The translations under genes were made by a program, and so were the position numbers. From Opitutaceae bacterium (GTDB lineage: Bacteria > Verrucomicrobiota > Verrucomicrobiia > Opitutales > Opitutaceae), in the NCBI GenBank assembly GCA_028284385.1, contig JANQRT010000050.1, positions 1 to 64,000 on the forward strand: 64,000 nt of DNA, given 5' to 3'. Under the pieces are notes generated by a model. That model had not been told where the DNA came from. It made no database searches and saw only the letters and a program-made list of their open reading frames with translations. Shown here one piece after another: positions 3,293 through 64,000 of the stretch. Each line of letters begins with the position of its first letter. The first letter of the stretch is position 1.

Positions 3293-3856
3293 CTAGTTTT
3301 GCGAGCTAGCTAGGTCGGAACTGGCGGACTCCAAAAAGCGATTTCTCTCGTCGGACGAAAGGTCACGCGAAAGCACTTTGCTTGTAGTGGCGACAACCAG
3401 ACGAGCGATTTCGCTGCGGGCATCGCTAAGCATCTTTTGGCGATCCAATTCGATTTGCTGCTCGGCTTTGGTAAGAATACCCTCCGCTTGCTGAATAGCT
3501 TCCTGGGAGGCCTTTTCGATACGCGATTCAGCAGCTTGACGAGCCTCTTCAATCAGTTTCTTGGCCTCGACCGAAGCCTCTTGGAGAACGCGTTTCTTCT
3601 CTTCCTGAGCATCCGCGAGCTGCTGCTTCATATCCTCAGCATACTTGAGGCCGTCGGCTATTTTCGCATTACGTTCGTCGAGAGTAGCGAAGACTGGCTT
3701 AAAGGCGAAACGATAAAGGACGAAAGCAAGGATCGCGAAGCTGATCAGTTGCATGACGATGTGCCCGACATGAATACCGAACTTCTCGGCAAGGCCTACC
3801 GACTCGGCGGCGGCCTGCGGATCTGTTGCTGCTAGAATGGGAAAAACGTCGATCAT
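3293..3856 (-). CDS. atpF: ATP synthase Fo subunit b
   Basis: This is the peripheral stalk of the ATP synthase. The 187-residue protein has one transmembrane segment near residues 33-50 (IVMQLISFAILAFVLYRF), then FKPVFATLDERNAKIADGL, a classic b-subunit junction, and then a long charged helix rich in E, K, Q and A up to residue 155 that would form the right-handed coiled coil. Only one b gene is present, so the stalk is probably a homodimer. The gene lies between atpE and atpH, in the order seen in most bacteria. Confidence 0.95.
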   Translation of the reverse strand: MIDVFPILAATDPQAAAESVGLAEKFGIHVGHIVMQLISFAILAFVLYRFAFKPVFATLDERNAKIADGLKYAEDMKQQLADAQEEKKRVLQEASVEAKKLIEEARQAAESRIEKASQEAIQQAEGILTKAEQQIELDRQKMLSDARSEIARLVVATTSKVLSRDLSSDERNRFLESASSDLASSQN

Positions 3857-3914
3857 TGCAAAAGCGGGTAGAATTTCAGACGAGCCGCTTTTTGCGACTC
3901 GTCAGAATGTCGAA

Positions 3915-4124
3915 TCAGCTCGCTAGGAAGAGAGCCATAACACCCAAGCCTTCGGCGAGGGCCATACCAATAATAGATTGAACCAGGATCTTGCCTGATG
4001 CGCCAGGGTTACGACCAACGGCTTCCGCCGCTTTTGATCCAACGAGTCCTACGCCAAGACCACAGCCAAGAACGCCGAGTCCTGAAGCGATATTGCCGCT
4101 GATTTCTGCTAGTAGATTTAACAT
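3915..4124 (-). CDS. atpE: ATP synthase Fo subunit c
   Basis: This is the proteolipid that forms the rotor ring. The 69 residues make two transmembrane helices joined by a polar loop with the RNPGA motif at 38-42. Helix 1 carries glycine spacing (G15, G17, G20, G22, G24, G26) needed for tight ring packing. The ion-carrying carboxylate is E58 in helix 2, within MALAEGLGVMAL. The residue after E58 is glycine, and helix 1 has no glutamine of the sodium type, so I infer a proton-driven enzyme. The gene sits between atpB and atpF. Confidence 0.96.
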   Translation of the reverse strand: MLNLLAEISGNIASGLGVLGCGLGVGLVGSKAAEAVGRNPGASGKILVQSIIGMALAEGLGVMALFLAS

Positions 4125-4199
4125 TGTATTGTGTTGTTAGCTGTTAACGTTTTATGCGGCCGCCCACGCTTGGGCATGGTCCCGACCAACAAAGTTTCA

Positions 4200-5051
4200 T
4201 CAGTGCTCGGCGTGTTCATGCCCGTCGTCGTGGTTGCAGATCAATCCGATATACACGCTGAATAATAAAATGAATACGAGAGCTTGCACGAGACCGACAA
4301 GCAGTTCGAGAAAGTAGAAAATCGGGAAGAAGCCCATTCCGTGCAGCAGGTTTTCTCCACCAAAAATGTTTCCGAAAAGTCTAACGGATAGTGTCAGCGG
4401 GCGTATGGCGATCGAAACGACTTCGATCAGACCGACAAAAAGAAATACCGGAATCAGGAGAAGCCACATGCCTTTACCCACTTCTTCCTTGTCTGCCTTG
4501 TTTCCGAAGAGATCGACAATCAGAGTCTTGAAACCGGCATACTTAAGCACGATAAACAACCAAGCCGCCATAGCGACAATGGCCAGAGCGATAGTCCCAT
4601 TCCAGTCCGCATTGGCCGGGCGTATCCAAGGTTTCGTGATATGAAAGTATCCTTCGGCATCGGTATATCCTCCGCCAAGCGTACCTACACCCGGAAACAG
4701 ACCACTCCAGTTCTGAATGAGAATATAAACAAAAAATCCGATTACTAGAGGAAGAGCTGCTCCAACGGCTTTCTTGCCGATGATCGGCTCTACCATATCT
4801 CTCAGACCAACCAGCAGATTTTCAATGATCGCTTGCCCACGCCCGGGAATTAATTGCGGTTTGCCGACCATCATCCGAACGCCGATAATAAGAAGGATCA
4901 CTACCACCCAACTAGTCACCATACTGTTGGTTATGGGCAGGCCGAAAACGGAGAAAAGCGCTTCTGGAGCAGGCGAGACGGCAGCAAAAGAATCGGTGGC
5001 GAAAAATCCGGTTGCTATTAGTGTGGCTGATACTGACTTTAGACGATGCAT
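4200..5051 (-). CDS. atpB: ATP synthase Fo subunit a
   Basis: This membrane subunit forms the two proton half-channels next to the c-ring. The 283-residue protein has several transmembrane segments. The essential arginine is R224, in LSVRLFGNIFGGENLLHG, and the last helix has the LVGLVQALVFILL segment with Q256. The N-terminus is unusual for many phyla: about 24 residues (MHRLKSVSATLIATGFFATDSFAAV in outline) look like a cleavable signal peptide before the conserved part begins. The C-terminus is rich in His, Asp and Glu (HDDGHEHAEH). It is the first gene of the visible operon; no atpI-like gene precedes it on this strand. Confidence 0.96.
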   Translation of the reverse strand: MHRLKSVSATLIATGFFATDSFAAVSPAPEALFSVFGLPITNSMVTSWVVVILLIIGVRMMVGKPQLIPGRGQAIIENLLVGLRDMVEPIIGKKAVGAALPLVIGFFVYILIQNWSGLFPGVGTLGGGYTDAEGYFHITKPWIRPANADWNGTIALAIVAMAAWLFIVLKYAGFKTLIVDLFGNKADKEEVGKGMWLLLIPVFLFVGLIEVVSIAIRPLTLSVRLFGNIFGGENLLHGMGFFPIFYFLELLVGLVQALVFILLFSVYIGLICNHDDGHEHAEH

Positions 5052-5222
5052 GGATCGAGGACGCCGATTTGTTGTAGAATCAAAATGCGAGCGTCAACTC
5101 TCTAAATCGATTTAAAGAAATATGAATGACGATTGTAGCAAATACGCTGGAGGTTAGAACAAACACTAATAATCTACTTCACGATATCTTCAATAGGCAG
5201 GAGAGAGTCAGCAGCTAGACTT

Positions 5223-5429
5223 ATGGCGGAAAAAAATTTATCAGGAGCGATATTCGAACTTAAAGAAAAAGAGCGAGCTCGGAAACGGCGGCAAAACCCA
5301 GCGTCAGCAAAGAAGCTATTCAAACTGCCCTATCGAAGCCGTTCGTTCGATCTTTTCTTCACCTTCGGAATGATCCTTCTAGGATTTGCTACATTTCTTC
5401 AGCTAGCAGCAATCATCCTATTTCAATAG
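5223..5429 (+). CDS. Small membrane protein of unknown function
   Basis: The 68-residue product has a charged, lysine/arginine-rich N-terminal half (KEKERARKRR) and one hydrophobic segment at about residues 44-66 (LFFTFGMILLGFATFLQLAA), so it would be a single-pass membrane protein with a basic cytoplasmic tail. A purine-rich GGAGAGA stretch lies about 15 bases upstream of the ATG. It is divergent from atpB and convergent with trmB. I do not recognise the family. Small membrane proteins encoded near atp operons sometimes help assemble Fo (AtpI, AtpZ), but nothing here shows that role. It could also be a chance frame. Confidence 0.5.
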   Translation: MAEKNLSGAIFELKEKERARKRRQNPASAKKLFKLPYRSRSFDLFFTFGMILLGFATFLQLAAIILFQ

Positions 5430-5504
5430 GAGACACTTTTACGTCGTATTTATATAATAGTGTAGCGCCGCACGGTTGCTAAACCTGAGAAGAAGAGAGG
5501 TCAC

Positions 5505-6101
5505 CTAGGATTCCGCCGAATGCCTGACAAGGACAAGCGATTCAAAGGCCTCGGCTTTCGACTGGAAAACGCTTTCCCTCTCAAACGGCCATTCCGCTTT
5601 AGCAGACACTTCCCAGTTCAGATTTTCATTAGCGATCGATTTGCTCCATTTCATGTATCCAGAATGATCAGTACGGAAATAGAGTTTTGCCTCTGATGCG
5701 CACGATTGAGCAAGGCGATCGAGGAACGGATTCTGGAAAAGCCGATTTTTCCAATGACGCTTCTTAGGCCATGGATCGGGAAAAAGGATAAATACTTTCT
5801 CCAATTGGATTTCGGGAGGAAGCCCTTCGATAACTTCCCATGCTTCTCCGACCACGAAGCAGACATTTTCAAGGTTGCGGGAAGCCTGCTTCTTACAAGC
5901 TCGAGCAATGCGATCGCCAATAATATCGATACCTAGACAAAAGGCATCTGGGAATGCGGAGGCGTAGTCGACTAGCCAGTGACCATGTCCGCAACCAATT
6001 TCCAGAACAACACGCGTTCTACCTTCGAGGACCTCGGAAAGGAGTTTCTGCAAGGCGTTTTTCCTTTCATCAACTCGTTGAAGGTGCGTCTCGTAAGACA
6101 T
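5505..6101 (-). CDS. trmB: tRNA (guanine-N7-)-methyltransferase
   Basis: TrmB uses S-adenosylmethionine to make m7G46 in the variable loop of tRNAs. The 198-residue protein has the class I SAM-binding start VVLEIGCGHGHWLVDYA near residues 32-48, the acidic strand CLGIDIIG, and the diagnostic TrmB motif FPDPWPKKRHWKNRLFQ near residues 106-122, followed by FRTDHSGY. It is slightly shorter than the E. coli enzyme, which has an N-terminal extension. It is on the same strand as phoR, with a 50-base gap. Confidence 0.95.
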   Translation of the reverse strand: MSYETHLQRVDERKNALQKLLSEVLEGRTRVVLEIGCGHGHWLVDYASAFPDAFCLGIDIIGDRIARACKKQASRNLENVCFVVGEAWEVIEGLPPEIQLEKVFILFPDPWPKKRHWKNRLFQNPFLDRLAQSCASEAKLYFRTDHSGYMKWSKSIANENLNWEVSAKAEWPFERESVFQSKAEAFESLVLVRHSAES

Positions 6102-6151
6102 AGAGAGATTAGTGAGGCAACGAACCCAAAACCAAAGAAGCCATAATGGTT

Positions 6152-7450
6152 CTAGACGATATGGTGACGCGCAGCCTCAAGAGCGAGCGGCAGGCGGAAG
6201 ATCACTTTCAGACCCGCGTCGTCAGCGTTTTCAGCCCAGACCCGCCCTCGGTGAAGTTCGATAATGTGTTTTACGATGCTTAGGCCTAAACCAGTACCCC
6301 CAGTCTCGCGAGATCGGCCCTGATCAACCCGATAGAAACGCTCGAAAATACGAGCAAGATCACGCTCGGGCACCCCAGTGCCTTGATCCAAAACCCAAGC
6401 TTCAAAATCACCATTATCGACTCGAGCTCCAATTTCGATGGCTCCCGAAGAGGGGGTATACTTCTTTGCGTTTTCAACCAGATTCTCAAATACCTGCCTC
6501 AGTTTTAGGGTATCGAATTGGACTGTGGCAGGCGTCTCCCCCGCATTGATAGCCATTCGCAGTTCCCGACCGTCGGCCTCGACGCTCGACCTGTAATCCG
6601 AATAAAATTCAAGCATCCAAGCCATCGCGTCAGACTGTATGAAATCCAAAGACAGCGAATCACTCTCTAGTCTGGAAAGACTCAAAAGGTCATCAATCAG
6701 GAGAGCTAGTCGCTCGGCATTACGATAGATGGTGCCAATGAATCGATCCCGGTCTTCGGTCGGCATTGAAGCATGATCCGAAACCAGCGTTTCGGAATAG
6801 CCTTTGATGATCGAGACGGGGGTTTTGAGCTCGTGCGACGCATTGGCTACAAACTGCTTTCGAACTAGCTCCAACCGTTTAAGTTGCGTAATATCATGGA
6901 GAACAAAGAGATACCAAGGAGAATTGCTCTCGCCTTCTTCAAGTAGAGTGGCCGCTGAAACCTCCATCCAGATTTGTTGAGGGCCCTCGTTAAAGACCAT
7001 TTCACAACGTGGAGAACCTTCCCCTTTTTTGACTTTACGAACGAATTCAAGAAAATCCGAACTATGCAAACCACTCTCTAATCGCTTCCCGACACTATCT
7101 ACCAAATCGGGGAAGAAATTTTGCAAGATACTGTTTGCCAATAAGATATAATTATCACGATCGATCATCAGGACGCCTTCATGCAGACTGCCCAATGTCG
7201 TGTCGATTTGCTGGACGTGATCGCTGCTAAGCTTATCGAGCGTGTTTATCCTCTCGATGAGGACATTGAGCTCCTCCAGCAACTGGATCCAGTTGCGATT
7301 GGTACCGCGGAAATCCTTTGAATGGGTAAGAATCGAAGTTCGGCTAGCCAACGACTCCGCAAGTTGCCGGATCGCTACCTTTTGACGGAAGTATTTAGCG
7401 GCGAAAAAGACGGCGATAACCGCCGTTAGGATTAGCAAGACATTCAGCAT
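6152..7450 (-). CDS. phoR: PhoR-type sensor histidine kinase
   Basis: This is a membrane sensor kinase, probably for phosphate limitation together with the adjacent regulator. From the ATG at 7450 it has 432 residues; a TTG directly upstream is possible but less likely. Order: one N-terminal transmembrane helix (residues 3-20), a linker helix, a PAS-like domain (about 80-190), the dimerisation/phosphoacceptor helix with H206 in VANASHELKTPVSIIKGY, and an HATPase domain with N, G1 and G2 boxes (LVENAKKYTPS, DQGTGVPERDL, GGTGLGLSIVKHI). Only one transmembrane helix and no sizeable periplasmic domain are seen, as in PhoR. It starts 11 bases after the phoB stop, so the two are co-transcribed. Confidence 0.9.
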   Translation of the reverse strand: MLNVLLILTAVIAVFFAAKYFRQKVAIRQLAESLASRTSILTHSKDFRGTNRNWIQLLEELNVLIERINTLDKLSSDHVQQIDTTLGSLHEGVLMIDRDNYILLANSILQNFFPDLVDSVGKRLESGLHSSDFLEFVRKVKKGEGSPRCEMVFNEGPQQIWMEVSAATLLEEGESNSPWYLFVLHDITQLKRLELVRKQFVANASHELKTPVSIIKGYSETLVSDHASMPTEDRDRFIGTIYRNAERLALLIDDLLSLSRLESDSLSLDFIQSDAMAWMLEFYSDYRSSVEADGRELRMAINAGETPATVQFDTLKLRQVFENLVENAKKYTPSSGAIEIGARVDNGDFEAWVLDQGTGVPERDLARIFERFYRVDQGRSRETGGTGLGLSIVKHIIELHRGRVWAENADDAGLKVIFRLPLALEAARHHIV

Positions 7451-53009: not shown

Positions 53010-54449
53010 ATGGTCTTTAGCTCGCCGATTTTTCTTTTCGGCTTTCTGCCTTTAATCCTGCTTGGCTACTTCTTTGCAGGCAAGTCTGGTCGCAACCTGT
53101 TTTTGCTAGTAGCCAGTCTCTTTTTCTACGCCTGGGGCGAGCCGATCTTTGTGCTGCTACTTATTTTCTCCATACTGGCCAACTATGGTCTGGCACTACG
53201 ATTGCGAGGGTCTAGTGGCGAGGGCCGGAAAATCTCCTTTTGGGTCGTAATCAGTCTCAACCTCGGCCTGCTTTTTCTATTCAAGTATTTGCCGTTTGTC
53301 GTAGGAAATCTACAGCTGGCGCTTGAGAGTTGGGGGCTAGGCTCTCGGTCTTCTTTTGCTTGGGTGGACAGTTGGCCGGCTATGCCGATCGGCATCTCTT
53401 TTTTCACATTTCAAGCTCTCTCGTACGTGTTTGACGTTACGCGAGGCGTGTGTCCCGTTCAACGCAATCCTCTGAAACTTGGCTTGTATATCGCCATGTT
53501 TCCTCAGCTTATCGCCGGTCCGATTGTTCGTTATTCCGAAATACGCCAGCAGATTGATGAGCGTCATTGGAATTTGGATTCATTTAGCCAAGGAGCGATA
53601 AGATTCACGATCGGTCTCGCGAAAAAGGTTCTCGTCGCCGATACGGTTGCTCGGGTGGCGGAGGTCTATTTTTCCATTTCTTCGGATGCTCTATCCACAC
53701 CCGCTGCTTGGATTGGGGTTCTTTGCTTTGCGGTTCAGATCTATTTCGATTTTTCCGGCTACTCGGATATGGCCATAGGCATTGGAAAGATGCTTGGCTT
53801 CCGTTATCCCGAAAATTTTAACTATCCTTACATTTCTAGAAATGTAAGGGAGTTTTGGAGACGCTGGCATATGACTCTATCTCGTTGGTTTCGGGACTAC
53901 CTGTACATCCCTATGGGTGGCAGCCGAGTGACTTCCTGGAGGATGGGTCTAAACCTGCTCACCGTTTTCGTCCTTTGCGGGTTGTGGCATGGAGCAAGCT
54001 GGAACTTCCTCATCTGGGGGCTGTTCCACGGAGTTTTTATGTCGTTGGAGCGCACTAAGTTTGGAAGCTTTCTCGAATCGCTACCGAGGATTGCTCAACA
54101 CTTCTACCTTTTGATGGTTGTACTGGTAAGTTGGGTATTCTTTCGCAGTGAAACGGTTTCCGGAGCCTTCAGTTACCTAGCCGTCATGTTTACCTGGCAA
54201 GGTGGCGATCCTTTGGTTTCCTCCTTGTCAAGGCACCTTGGCAACGATGCTCTCTTGGCCCTCTCTGTCGGCGTTATCCTTTCCTCTCCTTTTGCTTTGA
54301 ATTTAGCTAGAGGGATTCAGGGACGCGTTATTCGAACTTCTTGGCAGGCCAGTTTGGTTCAAAGAATCGGAGCCCTGTTACTCCTAGCCGTTTCCGTCTT
54401 GGTTGTGGCCAGTAACGCCTATAGCCCTTTTCTTTATTTCAGATTCTGA
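53010..54449 (+). CDS. MBOAT-family O-acyltransferase (AlgI-like)
   Basis: The 479-residue polytopic membrane protein matches the AlgI/DltB-type MBOAT group, which moves acetyl groups across the inner membrane for polysaccharide O-acetylation. Signatures are FFTFQALSYVFDV, QLIAGPIVRYSEI, DFSGYSDMAIGIGKMLGF, FWRRWHMTLSRWFRDYLYIPMGG in outline, and the catalytic histidine in GLWHGASWNFLIWGLFHG near residue 327. Its stop overlaps the start of the next gene by 1 base (TGATG), so translation is coupled with the AlgX-like protein. Confidence 0.92.
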   Translation: MVFSSPIFLFGFLPLILLGYFFAGKSGRNLFLLVASLFFYAWGEPIFVLLLIFSILANYGLALRLRGSSGEGRKISFWVVISLNLGLLFLFKYLPFVVGNLQLALESWGLGSRSSFAWVDSWPAMPIGISFFTFQALSYVFDVTRGVCPVQRNPLKLGLYIAMFPQLIAGPIVRYSEIRQQIDERHWNLDSFSQGAIRFTIGLAKKVLVADTVARVAEVYFSISSDALSTPAAWIGVLCFAVQIYFDFSGYSDMAIGIGKMLGFRYPENFNYPYISRNVREFWRRWHMTLSRWFRDYLYIPMGGSRVTSWRMGLNLLTVFVLCGLWHGASWNFLIWGLFHGVFMSLERTKFGSFLESLPRIAQHFYLLMVVLVSWVFFRSETVSGAFSYLAVMFTWQGGDPLVSSLSRHLGNDALLALSVGVILSSPFALNLARGIQGRVIRTSWQASLVQRIGALLLLAVSVLVVASNAYSPFLYFRF

Positions 54450-55591
54450 TGACTGCCAAACAATCCTTCCCGATTCTTTCTTTGGCGTTTATCGTTTGTT
54501 TTGTGGGCATCATTTCACTGCCATTGGTAACCATGCCATTCTCTTGGCTTACGGTCGAGTCTGCCGAGAAGCGAAGCGCCAACGCTTGGCCAACGTTTTC
54601 CGATTTATTCTCCGATTCGTATCCAAGTGTTCCACGCAGATTTGAGGACGCCTTCAATGATCGGTTCGGTATGAGAATCGAGATGTCGCGTTTATTTAAA
54701 CAATCCTTGTTTCATTTGAATCTGATGGGCTCTAGCCGTACCCAAGTCGTCCAAGGAAAGAAGGGCTGGCAATTCTATACTTCGAGCGGTTACGAAGACA
54801 CTCTGCAAATCTACAGTGGCGGGTTGGATTTCGGGGAGAGCGAGCTCAGCAGGATGACGGAGACGCTTCTGGTGTGGCAGAACTGGCTGGAGGAGCGCGG
54901 CGCCCGCTTCTACTATCTTTCGCTTCCCAACAAAGTGTCCGTTTATTCTCAATACAAGCCAGACTACCTAGATAAGAATCCCAATGGGACGCGTACGGAA
55001 AAGCTCCTTTTCCATCTTCAAAAGGCAGGGGTACGAGTGCTCAGTCCGGTCGATGTTCTTCAGGCTCTATCTAAGGAGAGCGATTTGCTCTATTTTAAGT
55101 GGGACACGCACTGGACACTTCTCGGTTGTTATCATGCTCATTTGGATACATTGGAAGCGTTGGCGGATGATTTTCCATCCCTCGCCAATTACGAGAGGCC
55201 AATATACACTTTCGATGTAGGTACGAAATATGGAGGTGATCTGGTAGATATGCTGGGAATTGGAGGAACGCATCGCGATCACCTCGTCAGCGTTTTCTTA
55301 GACGGTAAGCCCTTGCCTAACATACAAGAGCAAGTTCCACTCTCCTATGGCGATAGGGTAACGTTGAAATGGGGAGATCCCTCTCTCCCGACCGCCATGA
55401 TCTTTCATGATTCCTTCATGCTCTCGATGGGATCCTTCCTTTCCATGAACTTTGGCGAGACCACCTATGTTTTTGATGATAAATTGGATTCCGCGCTTAT
55501 TGAAAGCGAGGGGCCTGATATTGTCATTTTCGAACAAGTGGAGCGCTTTGCCCACCAATTGCTAGAACTCCCTCTGCCCCCGTTGGAATAG
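54449..55591 (+). CDS. AlgX/AlgJ-like SGNH O-acetyltransferase
   Basis: The 380-residue protein has an N-terminal membrane anchor or signal (residues 8-32) and an SGNH-hydrolase-type domain. The catalytic pair is in WDTHW (D219, H221), and the nucleophile segment is FHDSFM (H320-D321-S322), as in AlgX and AlgJ, which accept acetyl from an MBOAT partner and place it on a polysaccharide in the periplasm. The 1-base overlap with the MBOAT gene supports that pairing. The polysaccharide is unknown; alginate synthesis genes are not seen. Confidence 0.85.
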   Translation: MTAKQSFPILSLAFIVCFVGIISLPLVTMPFSWLTVESAEKRSANAWPTFSDLFSDSYPSVPRRFEDAFNDRFGMRIEMSRLFKQSLFHLNLMGSSRTQVVQGKKGWQFYTSSGYEDTLQIYSGGLDFGESELSRMTETLLVWQNWLEERGARFYYLSLPNKVSVYSQYKPDYLDKNPNGTRTEKLLFHLQKAGVRVLSPVDVLQALSKESDLLYFKWDTHWTLLGCYHAHLDTLEALADDFPSLANYERPIYTFDVGTKYGGDLVDMLGIGGTHRDHLVSVFLDGKPLPNIQEQVPLSYGDRVTLKWGDPSLPTAMIFHDSFMLSMGSFLSMNFGETTYVFDDKLDSALIESEGPDIVIFEQVERFAHQLLELPLPPLE

Positions 55592-56783: not shown

Positions 56784-57959
56784 ATGAGCTCCCTCCAAAC
56801 CCGTCCGTTTTCCGTTTTACCCCGTTCAGCTCGAATCCTTCTCTTTACCTTCTATTTCTATACCTGGTTGTTGAGAGATGGGTTTGCAGAGGATCACATT
56901 TCCGTAAAGTGGCAGGACTACAGCGAAGATGACGACCGTATACGTGTTATTTCTCGATATCTTGGAGTAGAAAAGGAGATCAATTCGAGCTTTACGCTTA
57001 AAGCTCATGGAGTTCATGACGCGATCTCGGGAGCCACGCCCACCGGAGTTCCTGCCGAGGATGGCGTAGAGGTTCCACTCAGCAATCTGACGGACCAGCG
57101 AACCTCAGGCGTAGTTGATCTGGTATGGACCAAGGATATCCATTCCACTTCGTTTCAATATGCCCACAGCAAGGAAAGCGATTTCCTTTCCCGGGGCTAT
57201 TCGTTTTCAACAACAACCGAATTAAACAAGCGGAACACGGGCATCAACTATGGCGTTTCTTTTATTAATGATCTGATCAGTCCCAGCTTTTTCGATCGCT
57301 CGAAACAGAAAGACAGCTGGGACTATTTCTTGGGCGTCAGTCAAGTAGTTGATCCCAACACTGTTGTCGCTCTGAATTTCACCTACAGCGTCTTTGACGG
57401 CTTTCTTAGCGATCCTTACAAGATCGTTCTTCAGGAAACCGAGATCCTTCCTGGCCTTTCTCTGCCCCTTACCTTTCAGGAAAATCGCCCCGACAATCGC
57501 ATTCGCCGGATCTGGTACACCAATGTGAAGCGTTTCTTCCCTGAAATCAATGGAAGTCTCGATTTCGGCTATCGGTACTTCAGCGATACATGGGGAATCG
57601 ACAGTCATACCTTCGATTTCGAATGGTATCAGAAATTTGGGGAACGCTGGATTGTTCGGCCAAACTATCGTTATTATAAGCAATCCGCGGCCGACTTCTA
57701 CACATTGGATTTGACAGGCGAACCGTTCGCGGCGACCGAAGAGCCCAGTGGGCTAGCTCCCTTCTATTCAGCCGACTACCGATTAGCTAAGATGGATACG
57801 AGTTCCTATGGACTGAAAGTGATTTTCAAGATAAACGAGACCTTCAGCCTGGATGCGGCCTTCGAACGATATGAGATGGAGGGCCGCGATGGGAAAACGC
57901 CCCAGTCCGCCTTCCCCGATGCCGATATACTTACCTTAGGAGGTGTATTTTGGTTTTAA
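56784..57959 (+). CDS. DUF3570 outer-membrane barrel with a flavinylation-type motif
   Basis: The 391-residue protein has a signal peptide (hydrophobic residues about 17-31, ending GFA), many alternating beta-strands, and the C-terminal aromatic FWF expected for an outer-membrane barrel. It matches the uncharacterised DUF3570 family. Residues 79-85 are DAISGAT, followed by PTG, which fits the motif D-x-x-[S/T]-G-A-[S/T] that ApbE enzymes modify with FMN on the final Thr (T85 here). The next gene, overlapping by 10 bases, encodes an ApbE, so T85 is a plausible FMN site. It is first in a DUF3570-ApbE-TlpA-DUF4266 cassette. Function unknown; covalent flavin is my inference. Confidence 0.8.
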   Translation: MSSLQTRPFSVLPRSARILLFTFYFYTWLLRDGFAEDHISVKWQDYSEDDDRIRVISRYLGVEKEINSSFTLKAHGVHDAISGATPTGVPAEDGVEVPLSNLTDQRTSGVVDLVWTKDIHSTSFQYAHSKESDFLSRGYSFSTTTELNKRNTGINYGVSFINDLISPSFFDRSKQKDSWDYFLGVSQVVDPNTVVALNFTYSVFDGFLSDPYKIVLQETEILPGLSLPLTFQENRPDNRIRRIWYTNVKRFFPEINGSLDFGYRYFSDTWGIDSHTFDFEWYQKFGERWIVRPNYRYYKQSAADFYTLDLTGEPFAATEEPSGLAPFYSADYRLAKMDTSSYGLKVIFKINETFSLDAAFERYEMEGRDGKTPQSAFPDADILTLGGVFWF

Positions 57960-58936
57960 CGACACAATGCGATCCCATGAAGATCGATGCGTCACTCTCC
58001 TTCGATGCCTCCCAGGAGCTCTACGCGGTGGCTTTCCGTGCTATGGGTACGAATTGCTCCATTAAATTTGCCGAAGCGGATCGGAATCGAGCCGAGAATT
58101 TCGCTCGAGAAGCCGTTCAATGGGTAGCCAATTTTGAGACCAAGTATTCACGATTTCGAGACAGTAGTTTGATTAGCCAGATTAATCGCAATGCAGGTAA
58201 GGCTTGGGTGGAAATCGATCCCGAAGTTGAGTCGATTTTCGCGATTTGCGACGATCTGCATTTCATGACTCAAGGGGTTTTAGATCCAACTATGCTGCCT
58301 TTGATCAAACTGTGGGACTATCATCAAACCCCTTCACGCATTCCGACCGATGATGAGGTGAACGAGGCCCTCGGACTGGTTGGCTGGAAAAAAGTGGAAA
58401 GAAAGTCCGGAGCTATTTTTCTGCCAAGAGAAGGCATGTCGCTTGATTTGGGAGGCTTTGGGAAGGAATACGCGGTTGATAAAATCGCGGCTATGGCAGT
58501 GGGCTATGGATTGACTTGCTGTTTGGTGGATTTCGGTAGAGACATTCACGCAGTAGAGTCCCCGCCCAAAGCCCCTGCCTGGCATATCGCGTTGGAAAAT
58601 CCTGAAAACCCGGATACGCCCTGGACTAGCGTAGCTGCATGCAATCTTGGTATTGCCACCTCTGGCGATTATTGTCGTTTCTTTGAAAAGAATGGGCAGC
58701 GCTATGGGCATATTATCGACCCGCGAAACGGTAGGCCGATAGCCAACGCGATTCTCGCAGTTAGCATCCTGGCTAACTCCTGCCTTGAAGCAGGCGTTTT
58801 GTCCACAGCCGCATTTGTCTTAGGCGAGGAGGAAGGGATAAAGCTAATTGAAGGAACTTTCGGAGCGGAAGGATGCTTCGTATTTAATAATGGAATACAG
58901 CAAACATCGAATTTTTATCAGCATGTCGTACAATAG
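57950..58936 (+). CDS. apbE: FAD:protein FMN transferase (ApbE family)
   Basis: ApbE enzymes transfer FMN from FAD to a Thr of target proteins. The 328-residue protein has LDLGGFGKEYAVDKIA (166-180), the NLGIATSGDY (232-241) and GHIIDPRNGRP (253-263) signatures. I prefer the TTG start at 57950, because AGGAGG at 57938-57943 lies 6 bases before it and it overlaps the DUF3570 end; ATG 57977 is the alternative but has no ribosome site. Either way no signal peptide or lipobox is seen, unlike usual periplasmic ApbE. Also the metal-binding A-D-A-L-x-T motif reads A-G-V-L-S-T (281-286), so the Asp is a Gly and E280 may substitute. Confidence 0.88.
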   Translation: MVLTTQCDPMKIDASLSFDASQELYAVAFRAMGTNCSIKFAEADRNRAENFAREAVQWVANFETKYSRFRDSSLISQINRNAGKAWVEIDPEVESIFAICDDLHFMTQGVLDPTMLPLIKLWDYHQTPSRIPTDDEVNEALGLVGWKKVERKSGAIFLPREGMSLDLGGFGKEYAVDKIAAMAVGYGLTCCLVDFGRDIHAVESPPKAPAWHIALENPENPDTPWTSVAACNLGIATSGDYCRFFEKNGQRYGHIIDPRNGRPIANAILAVSILANSCLEAGVLSTAAFVLGEEEGIKLIEGTFGAEGCFVFNNGIQQTSNFYQHVVQ

Positions 58937-58949
58937 AAGAGATAATAAA

Positions 58950-59480
58950 ATGAAGCCTGCCATTAGTTTATTCCAGGTCGGAACACGTCTTAGCCTCCTG
59001 GCCTTCTTTCTAATCGCCAGTTTCGTGCCCAAGGCGATTGCCAGCGAGTGGTCCAGCGATGCGGAATTGCCGGATCTCGGAGAATTCGAACTGGTTGGCG
59101 AACTGCCCGAAATCGAGGGCAATGTCGTACTGATCGATTTCTGGGCTTCCTGGTGCGCCCCTTGCAAAGCCTCGTTCCCATCAATGGAGGAGGCGTATCA
59201 AAAATATAAGGACGAAGGCTTCCGTATCGTAGCAGTGAGTGTCGATAGCAAGGCCAAGAGTATGGAAACGTTCGTCAAGAGAATGAAGCCAAGCTTTTCT
59301 ATTGTCCATGATGCAAAGCAGAAGCTTGTTTCCAGCGCGGGTATAAAGGTAATGCCGACTTCCTTCCTCGTAGATAGAAAAGGACGTATTCGATTTACCC
59401 ATCTGGGATGGCAAGGCAAGGAATCAGCCGTTAAGCTAATGGCTGAGATAGAAGAACTTCTAGCGGAGGAGGCTCCATGA
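58950..59480 (+). CDS. TlpA-like periplasmic thioredoxin
   Basis: The 176-residue protein has a signal peptide (residues 1-31, ending KAIAS) and a TlpA/ResA-type thioredoxin domain with the active site C69-A-P-C72 (DFWASWCAPCK) and VMPTSFLVDRKGRIRF, which holds the cis-proline. It would reduce or exchange disulfides in the periplasm. I chose ATG 58950 because the signal peptide begins there; an upstream in-frame start at 58848 would add unrelated residues. It follows apbE by 13 bases and overlaps the DUF4266 gene by 4, pointing to a shared function, perhaps on the Cys-rich tail of that lipoprotein. Confidence 0.9.
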   Translation: MKPAISLFQVGTRLSLLAFFLIASFVPKAIASEWSSDAELPDLGEFELVGELPEIEGNVVLIDFWASWCAPCKASFPSMEEAYQKYKDEGFRIVAVSVDSKAKSMETFVKRMKPSFSIVHDAKQKLVSSAGIKVMPTSFLVDRKGRIRFTHLGWQGKESAVKLMAEIEELLAEEAP

Positions 59481-59695
59481 AGAATCGTCTGCTCTGCCTC
59501 CTGTTTTTTTGCATTGGCTTTTTGCTAACCGGATGCGCGACGGTCGAGCCGTGGCAGAAAGGAAATCTCGCCGACTACACAATGCGTTCCGATCGCGATG
59601 AGCTAGCTAGCGTGATGACATCGCACATACAATTTTCTCGCGAAGCGACTACAGGTGGCGAGGGGGTTGGCGGTGGCGGCTGCGGTTGTAATTAA
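59477..59695 (+). CDS. DUF4266 small lipoprotein with C-terminal CGC
   Basis: The 72-residue product has a lipoprotein signal (residues 1-19) with lipobox LTGC20, the DUF4266 core VEPWQKGNLADYTM and SHIQFSREATTGGEG, and a Gly-rich tail ending GGGGCGCN. The two tail cysteines (C69, C71) flank a glycine. It overlaps the thioredoxin stop (ATGA). The mature protein is only about 50 residues. DUF4266 genes tend to occur beside DUF3570, thioredoxin and ApbE genes, as here. The biochemical role is unknown. Confidence 0.85.
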   Translation: MKNRLLCLLFFCIGFLLTGCATVEPWQKGNLADYTMRSDRDELASVMTSHIQFSREATTGGEGVGGGGCGCN

Positions 59696-59736: not shown

Positions 59737-61353
59737 ATGGATACCATGCTGATTAAAATCAAGATTGCCCGCTACCAGATGGCGATCTTCATGCTGATGA
59801 TGCTCTTGCAGCGCATGCCGCTGGTAAAGCATCTGCTTAAATTCGACAAGGCGTTAAGCGCTCCATTGGCCAATGCCATTCGCTCCACAACAGTAGTGGC
59901 CTCTTCGCTGGGAATCTTTCATGCGTATTCTGGGGCAACCACTTTTACTACTAATCCGGTAAGCCCTGCGTCTGGAAAAGTAGGCGAACAATTCGACCTA
60001 GCCTTTACTATCACGGGAACTCCTGACCCTGTTCGCTCCTGGACCGTTACAGGAAACATTCCTCCAGGCCTTTCTGTACCGAGCCTAAATGGTCAGGTTC
60101 TAAATCTCGCGATCGGTCAAATTTCGGGCATCCCTACCCAAGCTGGTACTTTTCAAGTCAATTTGCAGCCTTGGGACCGTCTTAATAACACCGGCGATAC
60201 AACGAGTCCATTTCCGGTCACTATTAACATTGCCAATGCCGATCCGCCGCCTGTCCCCGAATTCACGACACAGCCTGAATCGATCTCCGTCAATCCAGGC
60301 TCTACTGCGGTTTTCTTTGCGGAGACTAACTCGACGGCAGCTGTCCAGTGGTTCAAGGATGGGGTCGCTTTAGCAGGCGAAACGAATCTCTCGCTGATCA
60401 TCGAAAATGTAAGTAATTCAAATGCAGGCTCTTACACGGTTACGCTTAGCAATAACGCTGGGTCTGCAGATTCGACGCCTGCTTTGCTGACGGTTGATTT
60501 CTTAGGAAGCTCCAAGCTCGTCAATCTTGCCAACCGAGGACTGGTTGGAACGGGAGATAGTATAATGATCGTCGGTTTTAATCTTCGAGGCGAAGGAGCT
60601 AAGAACATTCTGGTCAGGGCTTCTGGTCCTGCTCTGCAAAACGCTGACACTCCTGTTGAAGGAGCGATGTCTGACCCTACGCTCACGGTCTTGCCGCTTT
60701 CCGGGCAGAACTTCCAGTCCGTGACCAACGACAATTGGGAAGACGCTCCCAATGTCGCGGATATTGTAGCTGCTACTGCGAACTTCGGATTGGACGCCTT
60801 TGCCGACGGAAGTCTCGATTCCGCGATCCTGGCGGAAATGCCAGAAGGTTCTTACGGAGCTCTGCTTAGCGGTGTTGGGGGCACGACTGGTGTGGGCCTG
60901 CTTGAAGTAGTGGATGCTGAAACGGGCGAGCCGATCAGCTTCAACAATCTTTCTACCCGTTCATTTGTTGGAGATGGCGACAATGTCATCATTCCTGGTT
61001 TTATCATTCAGGGCGATGTCGGCAAAACGGTTATCATTCGGGCTCTTGGGCCCGATCTTATTACTCGAGGCGACCCCATCTCCCCTGATGACGTTTTACA
61101 GGATCCGACGCTCACTCTTTTCCGGCTTTTTCCATCGTTTGCGGTGGTTGCGACCAACGACAACTGGGACGAAAGTGGAAACAGCGATTTAATCCTGAGT
61201 AGCTTTGTCGAAGCTGGGGCGACCGCATTGCAGATTGGCTCTAAGGATTCAACGATTCTCGCTACGCTTTCTCCTGGAAACTATGGCGCTGTGACCTCTG
61301 GAGTCGAAGGTTTGATTGGCATAGCTTTGGTCGAGGTGTTTGAGGCCGATTAG
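59737..61353 (+). CDS. Ig-like secreted protein 1
   Basis: The 538-residue protein has an unusual N-terminus: a basic start, a hydrophobic helix at about residues 12-30 (YQMAIFMLMMLLQRMPL), an amphipathic stretch, and a second hydrophobic segment (50-64) leading to HAYSGAT (62-68). Then follow a putative Ig/cadherin-like domain (about 75-170), an I-set Ig-like domain (about 180-255, with VQWFKDGVALAGETNLSL) and two copies of a beta-rich unit beginning LVNLANRGLVGTGD and containing NDNWEDAPN or NDNWDESGN. It has a close paralogue directly downstream. It starts 41 bases after the DUF4266 stop and may belong to the same transcript. Its likely role is a surface or matrix protein; function unknown. 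Confidence 0.75.
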   Translation: MDTMLIKIKIARYQMAIFMLMMLLQRMPLVKHLLKFDKALSAPLANAIRSTTVVASSLGIFHAYSGATTFTTNPVSPASGKVGEQFDLAFTITGTPDPVRSWTVTGNIPPGLSVPSLNGQVLNLAIGQISGIPTQAGTFQVNLQPWDRLNNTGDTTSPFPVTINIANADPPPVPEFTTQPESISVNPGSTAVFFAETNSTAAVQWFKDGVALAGETNLSLIIENVSNSNAGSYTVTLSNNAGSADSTPALLTVDFLGSSKLVNLANRGLVGTGDSIMIVGFNLRGEGAKNILVRASGPALQNADTPVEGAMSDPTLTVLPLSGQNFQSVTNDNWEDAPNVADIVAATANFGLDAFADGSLDSAILAEMPEGSYGALLSGVGGTTGVGLLEVVDAETGEPISFNNLSTRSFVGDGDNVIIPGFIIQGDVGKTVIIRALGPDLITRGDPISPDDVLQDPTLTLFRLFPSFAVVATNDNWDESGNSDLILSSFVEAGATALQIGSKDSTILATLSPGNYGAVTSGVEGLIGIALVEVFEAD

Positions 61354-61387: not shown

Positions 61388-63016
61388 ATGAAGTACTGGA
61401 GGATAAAGACTCAGTTGCTGCGTTATCAGGCTGCTATCATGCTTCTTGCCCTGCTCCTGCAACGTTCTCCGATTTTCCAGTACATTCTTCATTTGAAAAC
61501 CAGTCTTGAGCGACCTATTGCCAGGATCGTTCAAACGACATCGATTGCGGCTGCATCGCTTGGAGGATTTCATGCGGTTTCGGGAGCCACGCGTTTCTCG
61601 ACCCAGCCTGCGGGGCCATTCGAGACGAGAGCCGAAGAAAGTTTCTCAATGTCCTTCACCGTACTAGGGTCGCCTGCCAACCCCGCCTCTTGGCTGATCG
61701 AAGGGGAAATTCCTCCAGGCTTGAGCGTTACCAGCAATTCAGGCGATTCCTTGATCAACAATGGAATCAATGGGCGAGTCGTGGTGGTGAGTGGCGTTCC
61801 CACATCCTCTGGCATTTATACTTTTACGGCCCAGGCATTTAAAGAGGCCAATCTTACGGGTGATACCGATGGGGTTAAAAATCCATTGGCCATCATGGTT
61901 ACGGAAGCTCTTCCGCCTTTGCCGGAAGTCTTGGTTCATCCGCTATCGATAACGGTTCGCCCAGGCGGAATCGCCGTTTTCTCTATTACTCCAAATGAGG
62001 CGCCTTCTAGCATTACCTGGTTTAAAAACAATATTCCTATCCCTGGGGAAACGAGCGAAACATTGATTCTGGAGAATGTGGGTAGCGCTAATGGAGGGTC
62101 CTATGTGGCTTCTCTGTCCAACGAATCCGGTACGGTGCTTTCCGATGTCGCAACGCTTAGCGTGGTTGAGAACGGAACTTCAACTATGGTGAACATCGCC
62201 AATCGAGGATTGGTGGGGACGGGTGACGATATCATGATCGCCGGATTTACGATTGCCGGGACCGGTTCCAAGAGGATCCTTCTTCGAGCTTCGGGGCCTG
62301 CTTTACTTAACGCGGATCCTCCAGTGAGTGGATTTTTGGCAGACCCTTCCTTGTTGGTTGTAGGGAATGGCGGATTTGAAGCGCTTTCTAACGACAATTG
62401 GGAGGATGCTCAAAACGTCTCTGAAATTTCCTCCGCATTCTCGACCGTGGGTGTCGACCCGTTTGCCGAGGGTAGCAAGGATGCCGCAGTGCTAGCCGAT
62501 TTCCCTGCTGGTTCCTATGGGGCGATTTTAAGCGGGGTCAATGAAGCGACCGGAGTCGCCTTGATTGAGGCGTTTGATGCGGATACCGGATTGCCGATCA
62601 AGTTGATCAATCTGTCTACGCGTTGTGTGGCTGGCGATGGCGACAATGTGGTTATCCCAGGATTTGTGATACAAGGAGATGTAGCGAAGACTGTTATTAT
62701 TCGGGGTGTTGGGCCCAACCTAATCGGTCAGCCTGGAGGTCCGGCGGCGGAAACCATTCTGCAAGATCCCAGTATGACCCTGTTTCAGACCTTTCCTGTT
62801 TTCCGGCAATTAAGTTTCAACGACAACTGGGATGAGAGTGGCAATGCGGATACGATCACTACGTTATTCCAGCAAGTAGGAGCCAGCGTTCTTCCAGACG
62901 GAGCGAAAGACGCGGCTATTGTGGCGACTCTGCCTCCAGGAGGCTATGGGGTTGTGACGAGGGGAGCGGGAGAGGAAACCGGCATCTGCTTGGTGGAGGT
63001 GTTCGAGGCCGATTAG
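61388..63016 (+). CDS. Ig-like secreted protein 2 (paralogue)
   Basis: This 542-residue protein has the same layout as its upstream neighbour: basic start, hydrophobic helix (LRYQAAIMLLALLLQRSP), second hydrophobic segment, HAVSGAT at residues 62-68 (the same position as in the paralogue), putative Ig/cadherin-like domain, Ig-like domain (ITWFKNNIPIPGETSETL) and two copies of the VNIANRGLVGTGD/NDNW repeat unit. Both proteins end VEVFEAD. I chose ATG 61388 because it aligns with the paralogue start; an in-frame TTG at 61340 lies inside the previous gene. The pair is a tandem duplication that has since diverged. Confidence 0.75.
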   Translation: MKYWRIKTQLLRYQAAIMLLALLLQRSPIFQYILHLKTSLERPIARIVQTTSIAAASLGGFHAVSGATRFSTQPAGPFETRAEESFSMSFTVLGSPANPASWLIEGEIPPGLSVTSNSGDSLINNGINGRVVVVSGVPTSSGIYTFTAQAFKEANLTGDTDGVKNPLAIMVTEALPPLPEVLVHPLSITVRPGGIAVFSITPNEAPSSITWFKNNIPIPGETSETLILENVGSANGGSYVASLSNESGTVLSDVATLSVVENGTSTMVNIANRGLVGTGDDIMIAGFTIAGTGSKRILLRASGPALLNADPPVSGFLADPSLLVVGNGGFEALSNDNWEDAQNVSEISSAFSTVGVDPFAEGSKDAAVLADFPAGSYGAILSGVNEATGVALIEAFDADTGLPIKLINLSTRCVAGDGDNVVIPGFVIQGDVAKTVIIRGVGPNLIGQPGGPAAETILQDPSMTLFQTFPVFRQLSFNDNWDESGNADTITTLFQQVGASVLPDGAKDAAIVATLPPGGYGVVTRGAGEETGICLVEVFEAD

Positions 63017-63091
63017 GATCAAAGTAGGCAGGCATCAGTGGTCAATTGGCAGATTGAACTAACGACTGTCTACTGCCGACTAAAAACTTTC

Positions 63092-64000
63092 TCAGACACC
63101 CCCGAAAAGATCTTCCAAGCTTCGTTCAGCTTTTATGGATACAGCTCGTTTTTCTTTGGCGGACAAGGCGAGGGCGTCGAGCATCTTCATCAAAGTAAGA
63201 CCCTGTTTGCCTGTGTTTTGCGGCTCCCTCTTCTCCTTGATGGCATCGATAAACTCGCGAGCCTGCCTCTTGAAGGTTTCTTCTTGTTCGACCGCCTCTG
63301 CGTAAGATTCGATATCGATGTCTTCTCTCGGTCTTACGTGTATCTTTTCGCCGGATACCATGTCTATTGAAGCTTTGCTACCAAATACTTGGAGTTGATG
63401 GACGTTGGACGAGTCTCGAAGTGTTCTTGGACCCTCGATGTGCGTCAGGAACGAAGTCTCGTAGGTCAGCGTCGCTCCGTTCTTGAAACGGACCATTCCG
63501 AAAGAGGAATCCTCCGCCGCATCGTCGGGATCGCTCATCTCGTTTTTCATGAGAAGATTGTGGGCGCTAGCAAAAGCTTCCACAGGATCAGGGCATCCAA
63601 TGGCAAACCAGAGCGAATCGATTATATGGATACCAATATCAAGCAAGGCTCCACCACCACGCTCGACGCTGCCGCGCCAGCTGTCCGGCTCGAATGGCCA
63701 CCACCCCCACTGCCACTTCGCGCTTGCATGGTAGACTTCGCCTAGATTGCCCTCTTCGATCATTTTTCGAGCGTTTAGGAGCTCGTTAGAGAATCGTTGC
63801 TGCCTTGCCCACATGTAGGTTTTCCCGACCAGACCGGCTGTTGTTACGATCTGAGACATCTCTCGAGCATTGGTCGCTGGGGGTTTCTCGCTCAGCACAT
63901 GGAGCCCTGCATCGAAAGCCTCGCTCACATGACGTTCGTGCAAGTTGGTTGGCGTCGTGATAACAATAGCGTCAATGTCTCCGGAGTGAACCAATTCCGA
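63092..64000 (-). CDS. Gfo/Idh/MocA-family oxidoreductase (N-terminus missing)
   Basis: The frame is open to the right edge, so the first part of the Rossmann domain is outside the window. The visible 302 residues include IDAIVITTPTNLHERHVSEAF, the conserved HVLSEKPPATN loop with the catalytic lysine of the family, GGGALLDIGIHIIDSLWF, which has the DxxxH pair near the active site, and a C-terminal beta-sheet domain. It should be an NAD(P)-dependent sugar or inositol dehydrogenase; the substrate cannot be told. It is convergent with the Ig-like paralogue. Confidence 0.88.
   Translation of the reverse strand, partial: SELVHSGDIDAIVITTPTNLHERHVSEAFDAGLHVLSEKPPATNAREMSQIVTTAGLVGKTYMWARQQRFSNELLNARKMIEEGNLGEVYHASAKWQWGWWPFEPDSWRGSVERGGGALLDIGIHIIDSLWFAIGCPDPVEAFASAHNLLMKNEMSDPDDAAEDSSFGMVRFKNGATLTYETSFLTHIEGPRTLRDSSNVHQLQVFGSKASIDMVSGEKIHVRPREDIDIESYAEAVEQEETFKRQAREFIDAIKEKREPQNTGKQGLTLMKMLDALALSAKEKRAVSIKAERSLEDLFGGV

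What the first reader, a model, noticed from the sequence alone, without database searches (positions are those of the whole stretch)
56784..59695. DUF3570-ApbE-TlpA-DUF4266 cassette with a flavinylation motif in the barrel
Four tightly packed genes (10-base overlap, 13-base gap, 4-base overlap) encode an outer-membrane barrel of unknown function, an FMN transferase, a periplasmic thioredoxin and a small Cys-tailed lipoprotein. The barrel has DAISGAT at residues 79-85, which fits the known ApbE target motif D-x-x-[S/T]-G-A-[S/T] of NqrC and RnfG. I infer a covalently flavinylated outer-membrane protein, possibly part of a redox system at the cell surface. I do not know of a described function for DUF3570 or DUF4266, but I cannot search the literature.
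Basis: partly seen in the sequence, partly recalled or inferred. Interest (0 to 1): 0.8.

Follow-up and report, generated by a model that had tools for sequence, protein, structure and literature searches.

The report
Flavin cassette with Ig-protein clients
A published kind of bacterial gene set that is expected to attach flavin to an outer-membrane barrel is followed here by two genes for Ig-domain proteins that carry a similar motif and are predicted to be flavin-tagged as well, likely before export, which would make them new parts of a haem-free electron relay to the cell surface.

Summary
In detail: four packed genes (DUF3570, ApbE, thioredoxin, DUF4266) with DAISGAT in the barrel. The core is published: Meheust et al. 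2021 (PMC8238504) showed that a DUF3570 protein is flavinylated by its ApbE and listed hundreds of such clusters.

What goes beyond that paper's main text lies just downstream. Two Ig-domain proteins share an N-terminal region with LLQRxP and a near-invariant GA[T/S] (HAYSGAT, HAVSGAT). The region accompanies the cassette: 46 of 56 loci with over 4 kb downstream have it. In the order it is found in 36 of 44 DUF3570 genomes against 2 weak partial matches in 229 others; in the phylum in 24 of 41 against 0 of 346. Position 4 of the site uses the same residues (A/S/T/V) as the barrel's site. The ApbE shows no signal peptide in at least 70 of 73 scored frames, and the barrel's site is modelled at an extracellular rim, so loading before export is the simplest reading.

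Main rival: in the Ig proteins [ASTV]-G-A|[TS] may be a signal-peptidase site. No flavinylation was tested. New variant of a known kind.

The parts
56784..57959 (+). DUF3570 outer-membrane barrel, 391 aa, expected FMN carrier
   Evidence: PF12094 E 1.3e-68; AlphaFold barrel, pLDDT 91.0
57018..57038 (+). DAISGAT, residues 79-85; T85 is the expected FMN site, modelled at the start of loop 83-103
57950..58936 (+). ApbE-family FMN transferase without signal peptide (TTG start)
   Evidence: PF02424 E 1.5e-71; N terminus compared
58950..59480 (+). periplasmic thioredoxin (TlpA-like), signal peptide, WCAPC
59477..59695 (+). DUF4266 lipoprotein with Gly-rich Cys-Gly-Cys tail
   Evidence: PF14086 E 1e-20; sequence
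59737..61353 (+). Ig-domain protein 1, 538 aa, predicted ApbE client
   Evidence: I-set/Ig_3; N-terminal region profile A4
59803..59820 (+). LLQRMP, residues 23-28 of Ig protein 1, conserved element of the N-terminal region
59920..59940 (+). HAYSGAT, residues 62-68 of Ig protein 1, flavinylation-like site between N-terminal helix and beta domain
61388..63016 (+). Ig-domain protein 2, 542 aa (ATG start; a TTG at 61340 is possible), predicted ApbE client
61571..61591 (+). HAVSGAT, residues 62-68 of Ig protein 2

Best explanation
This is a DUF3570-ApbE-thioredoxin-DUF4266 cassette of the published kind, followed on the same strand by two Ig-domain proteins that carry a conserved [H/N/D/Q]-x-x-[A/S/T/V]-G-A-[T/S] site, and it is predicted to work as a haem-free redox relay in which an ApbE without signal peptide likely puts FMN on both the barrel and the Ig proteins before they are exported. 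Shown by sequence: gene content and order, motifs, lack of an ApbE signal peptide, co-occurrence of the Ig N-terminal region with DUF3570. Predicted: a barrel with T85 at the extracellular rim, out of reach of a periplasmic enzyme once the barrel is inserted. Inferred: ApbE in the cytoplasm reads the short site on both unfolded precursors and joins FMN to T85 of the barrel and T68 of each Ig protein, and the loaded chains then pass the Sec channel. Inferred: in the envelope, reducing power goes from the genome's unlinked DsbD to the thioredoxin, to the Cys-Gly-Cys tail of the DUF4266 lipoprotein, whose Gly-rich arm could reach into the barrel, to the barrel FMN, to the FMN at the base of the Ig fibres and to an outside acceptor.
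For: Homologous DUF3570 is flavinylated by its ApbE (PMC8238504). Site in 81 of 81 loci, with G and A nearly invariant. Ig N-terminal region downstream in 46 of 56 loci, 40 of them within 400 bases of DUF4266; in the order 36 of 44 DUF3570 genomes against 2 weak partial matches in 229 (Fisher p 1e-34); in the phylum 24 of 41 against 0 of 346, also where the genes are unlinked (for example G032, G048, G064). GAT or GAS in 103 of 107 sites; position 4 is A, S, T or V in both barrel and Ig sites. No ApbE signal peptide in at least 70 of 73. The site sits between helix and beta domain in the Ig model. Co-localisation with apbE plus a motif-like site is how two other substrate classes were found and then confirmed (PMC11334425, passages). 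Conserved Ser and His of the catalytic site are kept.
Against: No flavinylation tested. The strict motif D-x-x-[S/T]-G-A-[S/T] is met by 1 of 107 Ig sites: D in 14, S or T at position 4 in 38; the review calls the Asp strictly conserved although Asp to Ala had minor effects. The Ig site also fits a signal-peptidase site. The third residue of the proposed catalytic triad (Asp285 of V. cholerae ApbE, recalled alignment checked by spacing) is Gly in 71 of 73 and a gap in 2. 10 of 56 loci and 8 of 44 order genomes lack the Ig region, and 0 of 16 DUF3570 genomes of other classes have it. One of 7 further DUF3570 frames (L127) shows no [STAV]GA[ST]. The Hymenobacter cassette has an ApbE with signal peptide. 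No electron donor or acceptor is known.
Confidence: 0.5

Rival explanations
1. The GA[T/S] of the Ig proteins is the end of a long conserved export signal, cut by signal peptidase I after GA; the Ig proteins are surface fibres made with the cassette but carry no flavin, and only the barrel is flavinylated, as published.
For: The site follows a hydrophobic stretch by a few residues; position 4 (A, S, T or V) and the Ala at position 6 fit the -3/-1 rule (rule recalled); Asp is usually missing (14 of 107).
Against: Position 5 is G in 105 of 107 and position 7 T or S in 106 of 107, which cleavage does not need. In one common scan 17 of 550 other proteins with a hydrophobic stretch in the first 140 residues show [ASTV]GA[TS] there, against 56 of 67 Ig proteins (partly circular, as the family was defined with the site; 151 proteins without a stretch set aside). 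The same four residues occur at position 4 of the barrel site, where no cleavage is expected.
Confidence: 0.32
2. ApbE is exported by a route that leaves no classical signal peptide, or the barrel and Ig proteins are flavinylated in the periplasm by the genome's second ApbE; the cytoplasmic-loading idea is wrong although the clients are right.
For: Characterised ApbEs are typically periplasmic and lipid-anchored (PMC12052999, passages); the Hymenobacter DUF3570 cassette has an ApbE with signal peptide. FMN-bearing chains passing Sec are not documented in what I read.
Against: At least 70 of 73 scored ApbE frames have no hydrophobic N terminus, nor, by eye, have 7 of 7 further loci and a Vibrio locus. 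The genome's second ApbE shows none either (L002). Cytosolic ApbEs exist in Klebsiella and kinetoplastids.
Confidence: 0.13

Closest known systems
DUF3570/ApbE/thioredoxin-like/DUF4266 clusters (Meheust et al. 2021, eLife, PMC8238504)
   Same: All four components; [S/T]GA[S/T] site in DUF3570; CxC tail of DUF4266; DsbD not linked, as in 316 of their clusters.
   Different: One site in the barrel where the paper describes two; two Ig-domain proteins added; ApbE without signal peptide. The paper's main text does not mention immunoglobulin, Ig-like or Verrucomicrobi; its supplement was not read.
Porin-cytochrome conduits (Mtr complex)
   Same: Works-like only: barrel in the outer membrane plus redox partners on both sides; the Mtr barrel 6r2q_B is among the weak Foldseek matches (rank 49, TM 0.41 by query).
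   Different: No haem; thiols and flavins instead; no sequence relation shown; the role is inferred.
Flavodoxin_4 and FMN_red substrates of ApbE (PMC11334425)
   Same: Found by co-localisation with apbE plus a motif-like site (passages).
   Different: They descend from flavin-binding folds; the Ig proteins do not, and here nothing has been confirmed by experiment.
Cytosolic ApbE of Klebsiella (as cited in PMC12052999)
   Same: ApbE without signal peptide.
   Different: Its substrate is a soluble cytoplasmic fumarate reductase; here the expected substrates are exported.

Membership tests
DUF3570/ApbE/thioredoxin/DUF4266 flavinylation cluster | DUF3570 (PF12094) | tested here: met
   E 1.3e-68, 232 bits against cut-off 25
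DUF3570/ApbE/thioredoxin/DUF4266 flavinylation cluster | ApbE (PF02424) beside it | tested here: met
   E 1.5e-71
DUF3570/ApbE/thioredoxin/DUF4266 flavinylation cluster | thioredoxin-like protein | tested here: met
   Redoxin and Thioredoxin_8; the paper names PF13899, another thioredoxin-like family
DUF3570/ApbE/thioredoxin/DUF4266 flavinylation cluster | DUF4266 with C-terminal CxC | tested here: met
   PF14086 E 1e-20; ends CGCN
DUF3570/ApbE/thioredoxin/DUF4266 flavinylation cluster | at least one [S/T]GA[S/T] site in DUF3570 | tested here: met
   DAISGAT 79-85
DUF3570/ApbE/thioredoxin/DUF4266 flavinylation cluster | second [S/T]GA[S/T] site (typical of the studied proteins, not of the Pfam family) | tested here: not met
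   only one x3-[ST]GA[ST] in the protein; other-class relatives have two sites
DUF3570/ApbE/thioredoxin/DUF4266 flavinylation cluster | covalent FMN on DUF3570 | not testable with these tools
   needs protein chemistry
ApbE substrate (claim for the Ig proteins) | strict D-x-x-[S/T]-G-A-[S/T] | tested here: not met
   window sites HAYSGAT and HAVSGAT lack the Asp; 1 of 107 sites is strict. They are therefore called candidates, not members
ApbE substrate (claim for the Ig proteins) | gene linked to or co-occurring with apbE/DUF3570 | tested here: met
ApbE FMN transferase | conserved Ser and His of the catalytic site | tested here: met
   SGDY and GHIIDP aligned with solved ApbEs
ApbE FMN transferase | conserved Asp of the proposed catalytic triad | tested here: not met
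   Gly in the window and in 71 of 73 rows, gap in 2; activity therefore uncertain, family membership rests on PF02424
ApbE FMN transferase | signal peptide or lipobox (typical, not universal) | tested here: not met
   hydropathy scan; SignalP not available

The most novel reading that the evidence does not exclude
Opitutales bacteria run a conduit through the outer membrane made of flavins and thiols instead of haems: an ApbE in the cytoplasm loads FMN onto a barrel and onto Ig-fibre proteins that bear a dedicated N-terminal flavin tag (LLQRxP plus GAT), the loaded chains are exported, and a Cys-tailed lipoprotein feeds electrons through the barrel to flavins on the surface. The fibres are a new class of ApbE clients, in some genomes encoded far from the cassette.
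Probability: 0.28. Interest if true: 0.82.

Novelty: new variant of a known kind. Interest (0 to 1): 0.57.

Why it matters
Electron transfer to the outside of cells is thought of mainly in terms of multi-haem cytochromes. The published DUF3570 system has a flavinylated barrel but no function, and no partner outside the barrel in what I read. If the Ig proteins are flavinylated, the system gains a surface component and ApbE gains a new client class. The missing signal peptide makes a sharp claim that can be tested: FMN is attached in the cytoplasm to proteins that are then exported. One co-expression experiment would decide the first point.

Tried and rejected

Co-variation of position 4 between barrel and Ig site: 41 of 77 pairs identical against 22.2 on average in shuffles, 0 of 5000 shuffles reaching it; the highest excess among 21 barrel columns of A/S/T/V type, but only rank 11 of 131 by normalised mutual information. 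Shared ancestry explains much of it, so I do not rest on it.

Structure searches of the barrel gave generic outer-membrane barrels: they support the fold and no function. NCBIfam gave nothing for the window's DUF3570, DUF4266 or Ig proteins.

Other flavinylation in the genome: no FMN_bind match at E 0.001; a second ApbE on contig C69.

A first background scan for the site (3 of 244 background proteins, 12 of 57 Ig proteins) was badly set for the Ig proteins, because the 5'-most start pushed the site out of range; one search repeats it with one wider rule for both groups.

Papers: DUF3570 and DUF4266 each occur in one held paper; flavinyl + Verrucomicrobi + outer membrane, 0; ApbE + immunoglobulin-like + flavin, 0; flavinylated + outer membrane + barrel + ApbE, 1, listing only, on nosX. 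Claims of novelty rest on these searches of open-licence papers and on the main text of PMC8238504; its supplement was not read.
Full report
What is there. Four genes on the + strand encode DUF3570 (56784-57959), an ApbE-family protein (57950-58936), a thioredoxin with signal peptide and WCAPC (58950-59480) and the 72-residue lipoprotein-like DUF4266 (59477-59695). Two further genes follow after 41 and 34 bases: Ig-domain proteins of 538 and 542 residues (59737-61353, 61388-63016), 50% identical.

Prior knowledge. Meheust et al. 2021 (PMC8238504; outline with abstract, section 6 and passages seen) reported that DUF3570 is an ApbE substrate with two [S/T]GA[S/T] motifs, confirmed for Chlorobium luteolum by co-expression and serine-to-alanine changes. 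[quoted passage not shown] The core of the finding is therefore known. The window's DUF3570 has a single x3-[ST]GA[ST] site.

Motif in the barrel. In the aligned site of 81 loci (80 fetched, the best of 405 matches, plus the window) position 1 is D in 81, position 4 is A 27, S 25, T 25, V 4, position 5 is G in 81, position 6 is A in 78, position 7 is T 78 or S 3. Of 7 further DUF3570 frames looked at, 6 show the pattern x3-[STAV]GA[ST] and one (L127) does not. AlphaFold gives a confident barrel (mean pLDDT 91.0). From its DSSP I count 16 main strands plus a hairpin in one loop, with turns of 2-4 residues on one side and loops of up to 36 on the other; by the usual rule (recalled) the long loops are outside. 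DAISGAT ends strand 3 and opens the 21-residue loop 83-103, so T85 is predicted at the extracellular rim. Structural matches are general outer-membrane barrels.

ApbE without signal peptide. Before the catalytic domain the cassette ApbEs have a short, mostly polar stretch. A hydropathy scan from the 5'-most plausible start gives a 12-residue window of 1.6 or more in 3 of 73 ApbE frames (one of the 73, in L083, is not in the cassette), against 80 of 80 scored DUF3570, 74 of 74 DUF4266 and 76 of 77 Ig proteins of the same loci. The scan reaches past the domain start, and in the top-scoring ApbEs the stretch seems to lie inside the domain. By eye, 7 of 7 further loci show no signal peptide either. 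A Vibrio DUF3570 locus has an ApbE without signal peptide too, whereas a Hymenobacter one has a signal peptide. The Opitutales enzymes keep the conserved Ser and His but have Gly at the place of the triad Asp in 71 of 73 rows (gap in 2, compared with solved ApbEs); the Hymenobacter enzyme keeps an Asp there (LADGL). An enzyme in the cytoplasm would explain how a site that ends up outside the cell can be loaded. That Sec would pass a chain bearing FMN is my inference; the paper on bulky adducts (Bonardi et al. 2011) I saw only as a reference entry.

The Ig proteins. Their first 115 or so residues form a region of their own: a basic start, a short hydrophobic stretch ending LLQRxP, a second hydrophobic stretch, then the site and a beta domain (He_PIG in two of ten relatives scanned), followed in relatives by up to 8 Ig domains; one of the ten, L115, had no Pfam match. 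In this genome the region was found twice, both times here. Among 107 distinct domain hits (3 more without the full site set aside; some genomes are in two collections) the last three residues are GAT 95, GAS 8, other 4; position 4 is A 62, T 20, S 18, V 7; position 1 is H 61, N 22, D 14, Q 9, E 1. The strict published motif is met once. In the model of Ig protein 1 (mean pLDDT 85.2) residues 28-65 are of low confidence and the beta domain starts at 69, so the site is the hinge between the N-terminal helix and the fibre.

Association. Of 56 loci with over 4 kb downstream of DUF3570, 52 have apbE, 53 thioredoxin, 56 DUF4266 and 46 the Ig region within 7 kb; in 40 of the 46 it starts less than 400 bases from DUF4266. 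These loci are the window's nearest relatives, so the surveys matter more. In 273 genomes of the order PF12094 is over its cut-off in 44 (45 at E 0.001), and profile A4 matches 38, of which 36 are among the 44; the other two (G139, G175) are weak matches (E about 4e-6) that begin at model position 59, inside the site and after LLQRxP. DUF4266, the known partner, is found in 41 of 273, all among the 45, which shows that the method recovers a true partner. In 387 genomes of the phylum all 24 A4 genomes are among the 41 DUF3570 genomes and none of 346 others matches. The two samples share the window's family; together they hold 43 distinct genomes whose match covers the site, all with DUF3570. 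In family f8 (for example G032, G048, G064) the Ig genes lie on other contigs or far away, so co-occurrence is more than linkage. Against this, 10 of 56 loci and 8 of 44 order genomes lack the region (in MAGs some may be missing sequence), and none of the 16 DUF3570 genomes of other classes has it. It is a lineage-specific addition and not part of the minimal system.

How it most likely works, with the status of each step. Shown: gene set, motifs, association, missing signal peptide. Known from a homologue: ApbE puts FMN on DUF3570. Predicted: barrel with the site outside. Inferred: the same ApbE modifies the Ig proteins, because they travel with it, share GA[T/S] and show the same residues at position 4 as the barrel; and electrons run from DsbD (one over-cut-off match, on contig C52) through thioredoxin and the Cys-Gly-Cys tail to barrel FMN and Ig FMN. 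The weak points are the missing Asp of the motif (a review reports that Asp to Ala had only minor effects in the Klebsiella protein, PMC12052999 section 8), the Gly in the ApbE active site, and the fact that the Ig site is also a fair signal-peptidase site. The near-invariant G and T/S speak against a mere cleavage site, and so does the scarcity of the pattern after hydrophobic stretches elsewhere (17 of 550 against 56 of 67, partly circular), but neither excludes it.

Verdict. The finding as given is real and its core is already published. The extension, a family of Ig-domain proteins with a flavinylation-like N-terminal site tied to the cassette and to an ApbE without signal peptide, was not found in the main text of that paper nor in the searches, and is a testable new variant.

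Noticed in passing
L002 (G000:C69, about 62768-63493, - strand): Second ApbE-family gene of the genome, also without an evident signal peptide; a neighbouring open frame looks like an NRAMP-type metal transporter (by eye, recalled).
   Followed up: partly
window 53010-55591: MBOAT acyltransferase followed by an AlgX-like SGNH protein, as in exopolysaccharide O-acetylation pairs.
   Followed up: no
window 63092-63994, - strand: Open frame that looks like a Gfo/Idh-type oxidoreductase (by eye); it ends the run of + strand genes after the Ig proteins.
   Followed up: no
L007:13140-14414 and L007:14465-15739: Two tandem Ig-protein frames with identical profile scores, lengths and N-terminal sequence: a recent duplication of the candidate client gene.
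   Followed up: no
loci L025, L029, L040, L060, L075, L079, L083: DUF3570 with DUF4266 but no apbE found in the cassette, site kept; some of these MAGs have another cassette with apbE.
   Followed up: partly
L144 (Hymenobacter sp. DG25B plasmid), 3554-6630: Cassette in another order: thioredoxin, ApbE with signal peptide, DUF4266, then DUF3570 annotated as two pieces.
   Followed up: partly
L122, L123, L124, L136 (other classes of the phylum): DUF3570 with N instead of D at the first site (NSISGAT, NAISGAT) and a second [KV]AGAT-type site about 70 residues on; ApbE again without signal peptide.
   Followed up: partly
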